From assembly GCF_011082085.1 (NCBI RefSeq), contig NZ_CP041063.1, positions 372,001 through 436,000 on the forward strand: DNA of 64,000 nucleotides, given 5' to 3'. Below the pieces are notes generated by a model that saw only the letters and a list, made by a program, of their open reading frames with translations, made no database searches and was not told the origin of the DNA. Position 1 is the stretch's first letter, and the number at the start of each line of letters is the position of its first letter. A program made the position numbers and the translations under genes. Shown piece by piece: positions 458 to 5,253 of this stretch. Origin of the DNA: Bacillus sp. Cs-700. GTDB lineage: Bacteria; Bacillota; Bacilli; Bacillales; Guptibacillaceae.

Positions 458-1384
458 ATGAAAAAACAGAGAGTATGGCTGTTTTTATTCCTCATTCTTG
501 CTGGAGGTATTTTATTAAGCATTAAGCCAATAATGGAATACCGCAGTCAGCGTTTGAATGAAATAAAGCAAGCAGCATCCATGATGGTGATAAGTGAAGC
601 ACCAAATGAAACCGTCATTTCATCAATAGCAAATAAAAATGATCAAGCTAAAACGGATATAGAACCAGAAATAACTGCTACCAAAGAAGAACAAAAGCCT
701 GAGAAAGTTGAAAAAGCAGTAACTGATCCAGATATTCGTATTGTAGGCATCGGTGATTCTCTCACTAAAGGTAGCGGGGATTCCACAGATCAAGGATACA
801 TCGGAAGACTTGCAGCGAATCTTGAGCGTGATACGGATACATCGATTTTAGTTGAAAATTACGCGGTTCATGGTAGACAAACTCCTAAATTATATAAAAT
901 GTTAGTAGAAAATAATGCGAAGGCTTCGCTTGCAGAAGCTGATTTGATCGTCATGAGCATTGGTGGAAATGATTTAATGAAAGTTGTGAAAGAACATTTT
1001 CTAGACTTACAGATCGATGTTTTCCAGCGTGAACAAACAAGCTATGTTGAACGACTTGATGCGATTATGAAACGTCTTCGAAGCATCAATTCTGATGCAC
1101 CGATTTTATTTATTGGCCTATATAATCCTTTACTAGAGAATTTTCAATCGGTGACAGAAATTGATCAAATTGTACAAAGGTGGAATGGCGCAAGTCAAGA
1201 TACAGTAGAGAAGGATAATCGTACGACATTTGTACCGATATATGAATTGTTTAGTTCAGTTGATGAGAATTTATTTTTTGAAGATGGATTTCATCCGAAC
1301 GATCAAGGATATGAACTCATTGCAAGACAGATTCAATATCGATTGAAGCAAGACGCTATTGTCGAAGAAATCCCTTTTGAATAG
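458..1384 (+). CDS. SGNH/GDSL-family lipase/esterase, membrane anchored (YpmR-like), copy 1
   Basis: 308 aa. Residues about 5-22 form a hydrophobic signal anchor, followed by a polar, Glu/Lys-rich linker to about residue 92. The SGNH hydrolase core then begins with GIGDSLTKG (nucleophile Ser101). Block III (GGNDL) and the C-terminal DGFHPNDQGY block, with the catalytic Asp and His, are all present. The protein should be an active extracytoplasmic esterase or lipase of the YpmR type. GAGGAGG lies 8 nt before the ATG. A clear paralogue follows directly, so the pair looks like a tandem duplication. The linker is longer here than in copy 2. Substrate unknown. Confidence 0.85.
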   Translation: MKKQRVWLFLFLILAGGILLSIKPIMEYRSQRLNEIKQAASMMVISEAPNETVISSIANKNDQAKTDIEPEITATKEEQKPEKVEKAVTDPDIRIVGIGDSLTKGSGDSTDQGYIGRLAANLERDTDTSILVENYAVHGRQTPKLYKMLVENNAKASLAEADLIVMSIGGNDLMKVVKEHFLDLQIDVFQREQTSYVERLDAIMKRLRSINSDAPILFIGLYNPLLENFQSVTEIDQIVQRWNGASQDTVEKDNRTTFVPIYELFSSVDENLFFEDGFHPNDQGYELIARQIQYRLKQDAIVEEIPFE

Positions 1385-2293: not shown

Positions 2294-2947
2294 ATGGATG
2301 CATCAGAAAAATTTGAACGGCAATATCAAGCACTCGCGAAAAATTACGAAGTGCCAGAAGTCATCTCATCGAAAACAAAGCTTATTTTTATATTAGAATC
2401 TCCACACGTAGCGGAAGTGAAAAACGGCGTACCCGTTGCTGGTCCTTCAGGGGCGACGATGTCAAAGAAGCTTTTTGGACCAGACTATGCAAAGCCTCTT
2501 GGACTATTATTGAAAAAGCATCGAGAAGAAGAGTTGGAAAGACCTTCTCTTGATGTAGTCGGTTTGCTAAATGTGTGTAATATACCAATGCAAGCTAGAC
2601 CTTATGCATCTGAAGATCTAGAAAGCAACCGTGAGTTACTAGATTGCTTGGGTACAATTCGAACATCTGCAAAGAAAACGCCTTTTAAAGATGAAGCGTT
2701 AGTTAAGGTTAATGAACTTCTTTTAACAAAATTCAAAAACCGTTTGATGGAATTGATCGATCGAGAAGTGACGCTCGTCCCCTGTGGACGGTTTGCTCAA
2801 AAGTATTTTGAACTCGCAAATGTAATGAGTGATAAATGGACGATCGTACAGGACGTTCCTCATCCTAGTTATAATTCTTGGAGTCGTGAGCGTTATCAGG
2901 AGCCTGTCAATAGGGTAGTTGATGCGTTTAATTGTCATAAAATATAA
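2294..2947 (+). CDS. Uracil-DNA-glycosylase-superfamily-like protein of unknown function
   Basis: 217 aa, soluble, no signal peptide. Four segments line up in order with the UDG fold. FILESPHVAEVKNGVPVAG-PSG (about 30-52) resembles motif 1 (GEAPGxxEDxxGxPFVGxSG). VVGLLNVCNIPMQ (about 88-100) resembles the 'TNVVKCRPP' strand. LVPCGRFAQKYF (about 160-171) resembles the 'ALGNxA' strand. VPHPSYNSW (about 186-194) resembles the motif-2 HPS loop. The usual catalytic Asp/Asn/Glu segment is changed to ESPH, so glycosylase activity is not assured. Role in uracil or damaged-base repair is inference. A perfect 32-bp palindromic terminator follows. Confidence 0.55.
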   Translation: MDASEKFERQYQALAKNYEVPEVISSKTKLIFILESPHVAEVKNGVPVAGPSGATMSKKLFGPDYAKPLGLLLKKHREEELERPSLDVVGLLNVCNIPMQARPYASEDLESNRELLDCLGTIRTSAKKTPFKDEALVKVNELLLTKFKNRLMELIDREVTLVPCGRFAQKYFELANVMSDKWTIVQDVPHPSYNSWSRERYQEPVNRVVDAFNCHKI

Positions 2948-2968
2948 GGATGTTTATTGATTAGAACG

Positions 2969-3002
2969 AAAAGCCCCATTCGAATTCGAATGGGGCTTTT
3001 TC
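2969..3002. terminator. Bidirectional intrinsic terminator
   Basis: A perfect 32-bp palindrome with core AAAAGCCCCATTCGAA and its complement, ending in a T run. It ends the GDSL/UDG-like operon and insulates the peptide gene downstream. Confidence 0.85.
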
Positions 3003-3082
3003 TATGAAATAAGAGAGCACATAGAGCGAATGCATAAATATTGGCTCCGTTGTAATATAAATGTAATGAAAGGAGGGTTGAC

Positions 3083-3223
3083 ATGATGAAAAAATGGGCA
3101 GCTTTACTTCTCGTCTCGTTGGTATTCATGAGTGGATATGCGATCACCCCTCATCATTCGACTGACATGATTCAAGCATCAGCATATGTTGTACAAGATG
3201 AAGATCTACCTTATTGTCATTAA
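3083..3223 (+). CDS. Small secreted peptide, candidate PapR-like signalling prepeptide
   Basis: 46 aa, too short for routine ORF calling. AGGAGGG lies just upstream; start at 3083 or the adjacent ATG at 3086. The N-terminus is a typical signal sequence: MMKKWAALLL, then a hydrophobic stretch to about residue 22. A short polar middle follows, and the protein ends EDLPYCH. B. cereus PapR is a 48-aa secreted prepeptide whose C-terminal heptapeptide (ADLPFEF, SDLPFEH and variants) re-enters the cell and activates PlcR. The D-L-P-aromatic core, the final His (as in SDLPFEH) and the overall size agree. A PlcR-like regulator lies 190 bp away in convergent orientation. The assignment is inference from motif and context. 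Confidence 0.6.
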   Translation: MMKKWAALLLVSLVFMSGYAITPHHSTDMIQASAYVVQDEDLPYCH

Positions 3224-3316
3224 TTAATGAAAAGGGGTCTGTCGTGTGTCTGCACCTTTCCAATTTATATTAAACCGAATGAATAGTCCATGATCTCTTT
3301 GAAAGGAGGACATGCT

Positions 3317-3412
3317 ATGGAAGAACTCACATTGTTTATCACGGCAGGACTTTTCTTCGTGTCTCTCTTTAATTTCATCGTTATCTTGATTGAAAAGACA
3401 AAGCATAAATAA
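3317..3412 (+). CDS. Putative holin-like / type I toxin peptide (BsrE/BsrH-like)
   Basis: 31 aa with AAAGGAGG 7 nt upstream. It is MEELTLFITAGLFF..., one transmembrane helix and a basic tail EKTKHK. This matches Bacillus 'putative holin-like toxins' and the BsrE/BsrG/BsrH type I toxins in length, single helix, the FIVILI segment and the charged C-terminus. Its stop (3410-3412) is 1 nt from the stop of the convergent regulator gene and no hairpin lies between. A long regulator transcript would therefore run antisense across this ORF, an arrangement seen in type I toxin-antitoxin loci. Toxicity is inferred only from family resemblance. Confidence 0.6.
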   Translation: MEELTLFITAGLFFVSLFNFIVILIEKTKHK

Positions 3413-3413
3413 G

Positions 3414-4307
3414 CTACGCATTTTGTATCATTCCAATTTTCTTTGCATAATGATCGACATGTTCTTTAAAAACCTGGTTTTTATCAAGTTCAAATATGGT
3501 GGAGGCTGTCGCGAGATATTCATAAGCTAACTCTTGCTTGCCAAGTAGATAGTGAAGCTTGCCACACTGATAGCTCAGTTCGCCAAAAAGATAGAGGCGC
3601 TGTTTCTCGCGACAAAGTAAAAATCCTTCTCGTGCAATGGACAGAGCTTTTTCGTAGTTTCGGCAAGTGGATAGCGCTTTGGAATAATTATAATAGAGAC
3701 GGATTTCAATCGTTTCATCATTAATTATGGGGAAAAAGCGAACATGATAGAGCGCTTTATGAAATAATGGTAGCGCGCGTTCCCAATCTTTTTCCTCACT
3801 ATACAAGATCGCCATGCTAATGAGTAGTTCAATTTCACGTTCTGAGTAATTCTTGGAAGTAGTCGTTGTAAGGCGTAGGGCTTCATCTAGAAGTTGAAGT
3901 GCAGAGTGGGGGTCTCGTTCTAAATAATAAGTGCAAATTGCCTTGTGCCAGAGATAGAATTGTTTATTCTTTACTGTTCGAAATAAGGGGTTCGTTTCTT
4001 CTGCTTCAAGGATTTCAGCAACTTCACGATACTCGCGTCGTTTAATGTGTTTTCTAACCTGTCGAATCACTTCATTCACATAATCAAGGCGAGGTGTCTC
4101 TTTCATATGAAAAAAATAATTAATATCAACGCCGAGTCTTGATGCCAATTGATAAAGAAGCTCTGCGGAAGGTGATACATCATTGTTTTCAATCTGGCTT
4201 ATTAACGCTTGTGTACAGATGCCTTCTGATAAATCGGACTGTGATAGTCCAAGGTACAATCGAAGTTCGCGCAACGCATATCCGAGTGTATCCTGACGCA
4301 CCTGCAA
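3414..4307 (-). CDS. PlcR-like (RNPP family) peptide-sensing transcriptional regulator
   Basis: 297 aa. Residues about 11-66 are an XRE-type helix-turn-helix (LRLYLGLSQSDLSEGICTQ, then ISQIENNDVSPSAELLYQLA). The rest is helical TPR-like repeats to residue 290. Recognisable PlcR-style segments are LSEGIC-Q near the HTH, the IRLYYNYSKALS repeat helix and the ELSYQCGKLHYLLG repeat. PlcR of B. cereus is 285 aa with the same layout and binds its PapR heptapeptide in the TPR groove. The gene is convergent with the small secreted peptide gene at 3083 and divergent from the SDR gene at 4477. NprR or another RNPP member is an alternative. Confidence 0.75.
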   Translation of the reverse strand: MQVRQDTLGYALRELRLYLGLSQSDLSEGICTQALISQIENNDVSPSAELLYQLASRLGVDINYFFHMKETPRLDYVNEVIRQVRKHIKRREYREVAEILEAEETNPLFRTVKNKQFYLWHKAICTYYLERDPHSALQLLDEALRLTTTTSKNYSEREIELLISMAILYSEEKDWERALPLFHKALYHVRFFPIINDETIEIRLYYNYSKALSTCRNYEKALSIAREGFLLCREKQRLYLFGELSYQCGKLHYLLGKQELAYEYLATASTIFELDKNQVFKEHVDHYAKKIGMIQNA

Positions 4308-4385
4308 TCCCCCTTTTTTGACCTCATTGTATCACGATTCTCTTTTAAATACATATTTTTCTAAATTAAAATACAGTAATATTAT

Positions 4386-4405
4386 TATGTAAACTATTAT
4401 GTTTG
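4386..4405. promoter_or_regulatory. Possible operator between PlcR-like gene and SDR gene
   Basis: TTATGT-AAACTA-TTATGT gives two direct TATGT half-sites 12 bp apart. One half, read on the minus strand as TTTACATA, fits the TnCATA half of the PlcR box (TATGnAnnnnTnCATA); the other half does not. A second isolated TGCATA half-site lies at 3031-3036 before the peptide gene. Weak evidence. Confidence 0.3.
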
Positions 4406-4476
4406 AAGGAATTTTTCACTTGGTCGAGAAACTCTTTATTATAAGGCTAAGTTAGCTGTTATAAAGAGGAGGAGAA

Positions 4477-5253
4477 ATGTTGTCTTATTTACCATCATTT
4501 GAATTAACCAATCAAGTCGTTGTCGTGACAGGTGCAGGAAAAGGAATTGGGAGAGCACTTGCTATAGGAGCGGCAGAAGCAGGGGCTGATGTTGTGGTCC
4601 TAGCAAGAACAGAAGCGGATATTCAAGAAACAGCTGGACTTGTTCGGGATGTTGGTCGAAAAGCTTATCCCATTCAAGCTGACATAACAAAAGCGAGCGA
4701 AGTAACAGAAGCTGTTCAACAAATTGAAAAAGAAGCGGGAAAGATTAATGTGTTAATTAATAACGCGGGAATGAATATCCGTTCAAAAGCGAGCGATGTT
4801 ACGGAAGTGGAGTGGACGCAAATTTTCCAAACAAACTTGCAGGGCGCTTTTTTTATGTCGCAAAAGTGTGCAGAAGTAATGAAAGAAGGTGGAGGGGGAA
4901 AGATTATTAACATCTCTTCTGTTGCGGGACACGTTGCGTTAAGAACAGGAGTCGTATACGCAGCATCTAAAGCAGGTATGATTCAGATGACAAAAAACCT
5001 TGCACTAGAATGGGCTGACAATGGTATTACAGTTAATGCAATTGGGCCATGGTATTTTAGGACACCACTTACAGAAAAGTTACTGCAAGATGAGCAGTAC
5101 TTAGCAGATATTCTAAGTCGTACTCCAATGAAAAGAGTGGGTGAACTAAAGGATTTAGTTGGAGCAGCCGTATTTTTGTCCTCTGAGGCATCAAATTACA
5201 TAACAGGTCAAACGCTGTTTGTAGATGGTGGAATGACGAGCTATGGATTTTAG
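4477..5253 (+). CDS. Short-chain dehydrogenase/reductase (SDR)
   Basis: 258 aa classical SDR. TGAGKGIG (18-25) is the NAD(P)-binding glycine motif and NNAG is at 95-98. The catalytic residues are Ser148, Tyr161 and Lys165 (YAASK). The C-terminal GQTLFVDGGMTSYGF is typical of gluconate 5-dehydrogenase, glucose dehydrogenase or 3-oxoacyl-ACP-reductase-like members. Substrate cannot be told from sequence. GAGGAGG precedes the ATG. It is transcribed away from the PlcR-like regulator, so it could be one of its targets. A 30-bp palindromic terminator follows and is shared with the convergent lipoprotein gene. Confidence 0.85.
   Translation: MLSYLPSFELTNQVVVVTGAGKGIGRALAIGAAEAGADVVVLARTEADIQETAGLVRDVGRKAYPIQADITKASEVTEAVQQIEKEAGKINVLINNAGMNIRSKASDVTEVEWTQIFQTNLQGAFFMSQKCAEVMKEGGGGKIINISSVAGHVALRTGVVYAASKAGMIQMTKNLALEWADNGITVNAIGPWYFRTPLTEKLLQDEQYLADILSRTPMKRVGELKDLVGAAVFLSSEASNYITGQTLFVDGGMTSYGF

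What the first reader, a model, noticed from the sequence alone, without database searches (positions are those of the whole stretch)
3083..4307. Candidate PlcR/PapR-like quorum-sensing pair in convergent layout
A 46-aa signal-peptide-bearing ORF ends in EDLPYCH, close to the PapR pheromone ends (ADLPFEF, SDLPFEH). A 297-aa HTH-TPR protein with PlcR-like segments is encoded 190 bp away. In the B. cereus group papR follows plcR in the same direction; here they are convergent with a toxin-like ORF between, and the C-terminal Cys-His is new. This would extend the PlcR/PapR mode of signalling outside the B. cereus group with a distinct pherotype.
Basis: partly seen in the sequence, partly recalled or inferred. 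Interest (0 to 1): 0.85.

Follow-up and report, generated by a model that had tools for sequence, protein, structure and literature searches.

The report
PlcR-type pheromone cassette with toxin-like peptide
In the salt-loving Bacillus relative Pseudalkalibacillus, a secreted peptide signal (ending EDLPYCH), its intracellular sensor and a tiny toxin-like membrane protein are kept together as one gene cassette, so these bacteria very probably talk by a cousin of the PlcR/PapR quorum-sensing system with an unusual built-in third gene.

Summary
In detail: a 45/46-aa pre-peptide ending DEDLPYCH (3083-3223, +) faces a 295/297-aa HTH-TPR regulator (3414-4307, -). The regulator is an RNPP protein. PlcR is by far its nearest solved relative (profile E 6e-44; model Z 25-26), although it is only ~24% identical to PlcR and far from it in the tree. 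The genus is Pseudalkalibacillus. The pair is kept in all 14 genus genomes and P. caeni (DEDLPWCH), and in Alkalihalobacterium (EDLPHRH) and a third genus (EDIPFHH), always convergent. The last six codons vary only synonymously, while the linker evolves fast. PlcR-like genes across other Bacillaceae carry neighbouring precursors ending -LPxxx, in divergent or codirectional layouts, so the kind is widespread. Surveys already list a PlcR subfamily beyond B. cereus. It is a Hol_Tox-like 31-aa membrane peptide, present between pheromone and regulator in all 19 convergent-clade genomes, even where flanking genes differ. It is absent beside the divergent or codirectional relatives examined. I conclude it is a three-gene variant of PlcR/PapR signalling. 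Peptide identity, DNA targets and the function of the toxin-like gene remain untested.

The parts
2969..3000 (+). perfect 16+16 nt palindrome followed by T-run: probable terminator of the upstream gene, so the peptide gene needs its own promoter
   Evidence: inverted repeat, 100%; a comparable palindrome with T-run is seen in relatives
3032..3060 (+). conserved promoter/operator-like element GCATAAATATT-N8-TGTAATATAA upstream of the peptide gene; no good -35, so an activator-dependent promoter is plausible (inference)
   Evidence: conserved in 12 genus loci; only copy in the genome within 3 mismatches
3083..3223 (+). pheromone precursor gene (PapR-like), 46 aa by first ATG, 45 aa from the conserved ATG at 3086
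3086..3148 (+). N-terminal Sec-type signal sequence (KKW + hydrophobic core, GYA)
   Evidence: sequence; evolves pS 0.62 / pN 0.17
3200..3220 (+). predicted pheromone EDLPYCH (last 7 codons)
   Evidence: invariant DLPYCH in 14 genus genomes with synonymous changes only
3317..3412 (+). Hol_Tox-like 31-aa single-span membrane peptide, third gene of the cassette
   Evidence: Pfam PF16935 sub-threshold hits for this and its relatives; conserved between peptide and regulator in the whole convergent clade; pS 0.55 / pN 0.017
3414..4307 (-). PlcR-type RNPP receptor/transcription regulator; 297 aa from TTG 4307, more likely 295 aa from GTG 4301
4113..4274 (-). HTH_3 DNA-binding domain of the regulator
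   Evidence: Pfam PF01381 E 7.9e-12, residues 12-65
3462..4046 (-). five-TPR peptide-binding region (RNPP_C)
   Evidence: Pfam PF18768 E 4e-14, above cut-off, residues 88-282

Best explanation
This is a self-contained peptide quorum-sensing cassette of the PlcR/PapR kind, in a three-gene convergent variant. The precursor is exported by Sec and trimmed to its C-terminal end (about EDLPYCH). The peptide accumulates with cell density and is taken back up by an Opp-type permease. It then binds the TPR groove of the HTH-TPR regulator and switches its DNA binding. The most likely primary target is the cassette's own peptide promoter (positive feedback), which would also raise expression of the co-oriented 31-aa Hol_Tox-like membrane peptide; other targets are unknown. 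Shown here: the genes are real, under purifying selection and co-conserved, and the receptor is RNPP/PlcR-type by sequence and predicted fold. Inferred: export, processing, import, binding, activation of the peptide promoter, and co-transcription of the membrane-peptide gene.
For: Regulator: RNPP_C E 4e-14 and HTH_3; PlcR is the only RNPP hit by phmmer (E 1e-17), and by profile scores E 6e-44 against 7e-7 or worse for Rgg, ComR and Rap (one search's other better-scoring rows are generic TPR or HTH proteins); AF2 model pLDDT 88, top Foldseek hits all PlcR, TM 0.67-0.77, Z 25.8 and 25.2 with PlcR over 269-282 residues, against 21.2 for the next, TPR-only match. It is the only RNPP_C protein above cut-off in the genome. 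Peptide: signal sequence plus invariant DLPYCH with synonymous-only change. Pairing: 15/15 genus and family genomes and Alkalihalobacterium and a third genus; 56/80 against 3 in distant flanks for the -LP motif family-wide; the layout follows the receptor tree (10 changes against 28.7 in shuffles). Five Opp-type binding proteins (PF00496) in the genome. Third gene: found between the other two in all convergent-clade loci although GDSL/UDG/SDR neighbours are not shared outside the family; all 16 strong profile hits in 299 genomes lie beside such a regulator.
Against: No expression, peptide or binding data. Regulator only ~24% identical to PlcR; PapR-contact positions substituted (R91/E243/F280), and no clean covariation of receptor position 237 with pheromone position 6 was found. 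No PlcR box (TATGNAN4TNCATA) was recognised by eye upstream of either gene. The candidate promoter element occurs once in the genome, which could mean no regulon beyond the cassette, or that the element is not the operator. Pfam Hol_Tox hits are below the curated cut-off.
Confidence: 0.8

Rival explanations
1. The Hol_Tox-like peptide is a type I toxin whose antitoxin is the convergent regulator transcript (or an sRNA from its 3' part): RNA overlapping the toxin mRNA 3' end silences it, coupling receptor expression to toxin control. Quorum sensing would then gate a membrane-damaging peptide.
For: Stop codons of the two genes are 1 nt apart and no terminator was found in 2900-4500 by the pattern scan, which also missed the long palindrome at 2969-3000, so the transcripts probably overlap; B. 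subtilis type I antitoxins pair with toxin mRNA 3' ends (PMC6562991); Hol_Tox resemblance.
Against: The protein is extremely conserved in sequence (pN 0.017), unlike B. subtilis type I toxins such as BsrG, described as keeping only the transmembrane domain; no antisense promoter or sRNA was identified; related stand-alone ORFs exist without such a partner. The overlap could be a by-product of compact convergent genes.
Confidence: 0.25
2. The 31-aa membrane peptide is an accessory of the signalling pathway itself (export, processing or membrane recruitment of pheromone or receptor), not a toxin.
For: Near-invariant sequence and strict linkage to pheromone and receptor in the convergent clade; conserved LIEKxK tail.
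Against: Divergent and codirectional PlcR-like systems do without a neighbouring copy; similar ORFs occur elsewhere without a receptor next to them.
Confidence: 0.3
3. The regulator does not use the neighbouring peptide; the peptide serves another receptor or is a secreted bacteriocin-like product, and the regulator is an ordinary XRE/TPR repressor.
For: No direct binding evidence; contact residues differ from PlcR.
Against: It is the only RNPP_C receptor in the genome; strict co-conservation and tree-congruent -LP- C-termini across Bacillaceae; only the C-terminal six residues are frozen, as expected for a pheromone.
Confidence: 0.07

Closest known systems
PlcR/PapR (B. cereus group)
   Same: HTH + five-TPR RNPP receptor, similar length and fold (Z 25-26); neighbouring Sec-type precursor of about 45 aa with C-terminal heptapeptide of xDLPxxx type (ADLPFEF / SDLPFEH versus EDLPYCH).
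   Different: ~24% identity; precursor convergent instead of codirectional downstream; Cys in place of Glu6 and changed contact residues; an extra membrane-peptide gene; no recognisable PlcR box; different genus.
PlcRa/PapRa (B. cereus, CSIPYEY; PMC3519770)
   Same: PlcR paralogue at comparable distance (29% identity to PlcR), pheromone with [LI]PY core and a Cys, tested peptide-dependent DNA binding, no PlcR box.
   Different: 93-aa precursor upstream of the receptor, internal pheromone; no third gene reported.
PlcR-like/-LPxxx systems of Peribacillus, Cytobacillus, Rossellomorea, Priestia (this work; PlcR subfamily of RRNPP surveys PMC10075063, PMC12700828)
   Same: Regulators about 38-45% identical to the window's; small signal-peptide ORF ~200 nt away, -LP core, often several copies.
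   Different: Divergent or codirectional layout, shared operator-like 22-mer in the divergent group, no linked Hol_Tox-like ORF found.
TxpA/BsrG-BsrE type I toxins and Pfam Hol_Tox (PF16935)
   Same: ~30-aa single-span hydrophobic peptide with basic tail; convergent RNA over the 3' end is geometrically possible.
   Different: Below the Pfam cut-off; no antitoxin RNA identified; fixed partner of a quorum-sensing pair; much more conserved in sequence.

Membership tests
RNPP/RRNPPA receptor family | N-terminal HTH plus C-terminal TPR domain, 250-500 aa | tested here: met
   PF01381 and PF18768 above cut-offs; all-helical model matching PlcR over the full length
RNPP/RRNPPA receptor family | adjacent small Sec-exported propeptide gene | tested here: met
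   signal-like ORF 190 nt away, conserved with the receptor in all clade relatives; no SignalP available, judged by composition
RNPP/RRNPPA receptor family | peptide binding to the TPR groove alters activity | not testable with these tools
   needs biochemistry or a complex model
PlcR subfamily (PlcR/PapR) | receptor closer to PlcR than to other RNPP subfamilies | tested here: met
   PlcR E 6e-44 versus 7e-7 or worse for Rgg, ComR, Rap; top five Foldseek hits are PlcR. TprA and PlcRa were not compared
PlcR subfamily (PlcR/PapR) | C-terminal pheromone with xDLPxxx-type core | tested here: met
   EDLPYCH, frozen by selection
PlcR of the B. cereus group (PlcR sensu stricto) | groups with PlcR in a receptor tree | tested here: inconclusive
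   PlcR is on a very long end branch (5.3 changes per column); the window's regulator belongs to a well supported clade of its own (99/96 with one long-branch intruder)
PlcR of the B. cereus group (PlcR sensu stricto) | PapR-contact residues K89, Q237, Y275 | tested here: not met
   aligned residues R91, E243, F280 (alignment-based)
PlcR of the B. cereus group (PlcR sensu stricto) | papR codirectional immediately downstream of plcR | tested here: not met
   convergent
PlcR of the B. cereus group (PlcR sensu stricto) | PlcR box TATGNAN4TNCATA at target promoters | tested here: inconclusive
   none recognised by eye upstream of peptide or regulator; no whole-genome box scan was run
Hol_Tox (PF16935) small toxins | Pfam match above gathering score | tested here: not met
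   18.1, 15.2, 16.8 and 21.9 bits against 23.3
Type I toxin-antitoxin system | toxic peptide silenced by antisense RNA | not testable with these tools
   geometry permits overlap; no RNA data

The most novel reading that the evidence does not exclude
A quorum-sensing receptor gene and a pheromone gene enclose a holin-like membrane peptide as a single heritable module, in which the pheromone induces the membrane peptide and the convergent receptor transcript restrains it: a density-gated toxin-antitoxin switch built into a PlcR/PapR-type system.
Probability: 0.2. Interest if true: 0.75.

Novelty: new variant of a known kind. Interest (0 to 1): 0.52.

Why it matters
It supplies a concrete, testable pheromone (EDLPYCH) and receptor for a genus outside the B. 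cereus group. It shows that PlcR-type signalling is a general Bacillaceae theme with changing gene order. It also identifies a third, nearly invariant membrane-peptide gene that any model of this variant must explain. If that peptide is the output, quorum sensing would control a membrane-active peptide at the signalling locus itself.

Tried and rejected
Covariation between receptor position 237 (PlcR numbering) and pheromone position 6: an early hint vanished, because receptors with E237 occur with both Glu6 and non-Glu6 peptides. Operator of the divergent relatives (AAATAT-N10-ATATTT) sought upstream of the window genes: only weak 13-nt-gap matches, not credited. RNA structure of the peptide/membrane-peptide transcript: not more stable than shuffles (z -0.63). 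Rfam: only sub-threshold hits, taken as chance. Hol_Tox ribosome-site sequestration by upstream CCTTTC: not conserved in macyae-type sequences. PHROGs: nothing significant. Phage origin: only distant (<28% identity) phage relatives. RNPP survey supplements could not be opened, so it is unknown whether the Pseudalkalibacillus pair is already listed there.

Full report
Observation. From left to right: a perfect 32-nt palindrome with a T-run (2969-3000) closes the upstream gene; a pre-peptide gene follows (3083-3223, +); then a 31-aa ORF (3317-3412, +); and, facing both, a regulator gene (3414-4307, -). The stop codons of the 31-aa ORF and the regulator are one nucleotide apart. Alignments with relatives suggest that translation starts at 3086 for the peptide and at the GTG 4301 for the regulator.

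Organism and distribution. The named matches place the window in Pseudalkalibacillus, with 98-99% identical regulators in its closest relatives, one of which is a P. hwajinpoensis strain. All 14 genus genomes and P. caeni carry the regulator (58-100% identity), and each has the convergent pre-peptide. It ends DEDLPYCH, with DEDDLPYCH in two species and DEDLPWCH in P. caeni. Two Alkalihalobacterium genomes (QEDLPHRH) and two genomes of another genus (DEDIPFHH; one is a MAG labelled A. macyae) have the same convergent arrangement. That makes 19 genomes in all.

Selection. Over the 14 genus genomes pS is about 0.55-0.65 everywhere. pN is 0.17 in the signal sequence, 0.34 in the linker, 0.03 in the last eight codons, 0.006 in the last six, and 0.017 in the 31-aa ORF. 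This is what a secreted precursor with a C-terminal pheromone should look like, and it shows that the 31-aa ORF is a protein-coding gene.

Receptor identity. Pfam finds HTH_3 and RNPP_C above cut-off. By phmmer, PlcR is the only RNPP protein in the PDB that matches (E 1e-17). With a 22-sequence profile PlcR scores E 6e-44, while Rgg, ComR and Rap score 7e-7 or worse. The AlphaFold2 model (pLDDT 88, pTM 0.71) matches PlcR best by Foldseek and by VIA-align (Z 25.8 and 25.2 over 269-282 residues; next, TPR-only matches about 21). Identity to PlcR is only about 24%. PlcR sits on a very long branch in a tree of 71 receptors, where the convergent clade is supported at 99/96 with a single long-branch intruder. 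The residues aligned with PlcR K89, Q237 and Y275, reported to contact PapR Glu6 (PMC6568020), are R91, E243 and F280; K87 and N201 are kept as K89 and N207. So it looks like PlcR by sequence, fold and gene pairing, but is not PlcR sensu stricto. It is the only RNPP_C protein over cut-off in the genome, and five Opp-type binding proteins are available for import.

The wider family. Eighty named PlcR-like loci were fetched. A short ORF with signal sequence, Shine-Dalgarno and a C-terminus of the form [LI]P plus two or three residues lies within 600 nt of the regulator in 56 of them. The rest of the flanks beyond 1.5 kb, several times more sequence, holds three such ORFs. Several of the 24 'misses' are Peribacillus loci whose repeated ELPGLY ends in an extra K. 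Layout follows the receptor tree (10 changes against 28.7 for shuffled labels): convergent in the window's clade, divergent in Peribacillus, Cytobacillus and Rossellomorea, codirectional in Priestia and Thermoactinomycetaceae. In the divergent group a 22-mer, AAATATAAYTnTAGGmATATTT, lies usually about 40 nt before the regulator in most loci, with only two matches per genome (up to two mismatches) in three genomes examined. It is probably the operator of those systems. No equivalent was found in the window's clade. There the peptide promoter instead carries a conserved GCATAAATATT-N8-TGTAATATAA element that is unique in the genome.

The third gene. Comparing the window's neighbours with other loci showed that the flanking GDSL, UDG-like, SDR and aminotransferase genes are conserved in the genus and P. 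caeni but absent in Alkalihalobacterium and the MAG. The 31-aa ORF is still there, between pheromone and regulator (MEGITIFLTTGLFLLSLLNFIIILIEKTKK, MDAMTVFLATSMFLLTLVNLVILLIEKIKK, MDGLTIVLSTGLFLVALLNFIVLLIEKIKR). A profile of it run over 299 genomes of the order gives 16 matches below 1e-15. All are beside such a regulator. Weaker relatives are stand-alone ORFs elsewhere. All versions resemble Hol_Tox (PF16935) below its cut-off. None was found beside the divergent or codirectional relatives. The cassette therefore has three constant parts.

Mechanism. By homology to PlcR/PapR and PlcRa/PapRa (peptide-dependent DNA binding shown for the latter, PMC3519770): Sec export, trimming to about EDLPYCH, Opp import, TPR binding, changed DNA binding. 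That the first target is the peptide promoter is inferred from its isolation behind a terminator, the poor -35 and the conserved element. The role of the 31-aa peptide is open. It may be an accessory of the pathway, or a toxin-like output possibly restrained by the convergent regulator transcript, as the 3'-overlapping antitoxin RNAs of B. subtilis do (PMC6562991). The strong protein conservation argues somewhat against an ordinary type I toxin.

Novelty. Surveys have described a PlcR subfamily in Bacillaceae (PMC9765709, PMC10075063, PMC12700828), one of them stating that Bacillales systems encode the pheromone immediately downstream of the receptor gene (PMC9765709). I found no paper on this genus, the convergent layout or the third gene, but the survey supplements were not readable here. 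I therefore rate it a new variant of a known kind.

Noticed in passing
L052-L111 (divergent Bacillaceae loci), ~20-55 nt upstream of the regulator start: A strikingly conserved 22-mer AAATATAAYTnTAGGmATATTT in most divergent PlcR-like loci, two matches per genome in the three genomes scanned (up to two mismatches); probably the operator of these systems.
   Followed up: partly
L075, L086, L088, L095, L097, L107 and Peribacillus loci: Pheromone precursors with two to five copies of the -LPxxY unit in one precursor (e.g. five ELPPVY copies in L088).
   Followed up: no
L074, L077, L081, L094: Second PlcR-like regulators in some Pseudalkalibacillus genomes, forming their own clade, with no recognisable pheromone gene nearby.
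   Followed up: partly
L045:2419-2529 and L018:1257-1367: A second small membrane ORF of related type (MRTFMAVGTFLITFFQFVIMLIEKI...) on the other, upstream side of the regulator.
   Followed up: no
L160, L164 (Sutcliffiella-group genomes): Stand-alone relative of the 31-aa peptide (MSELQLFLTSGLFLFALVNLVIVLIREMTKK) between genes resembling pheT and rnhC (identified by eye), far from any PlcR-like regulator.
   Followed up: no
window 458-1384 and 1447-2277: Tandem pair of GDSL-type lipase/acylhydrolases, about 42% identical to each other; several genus relatives keep only one copy in this place.
   Followed up: partly
plasmid records H1-H40: PlcR-like regulators occur on plasmids of Alkalihalophilus, Niallia, Priestia, Rossellomorea and, more distantly, Enterococcus, Carnobacterium and Streptococcus.
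   Followed up: no
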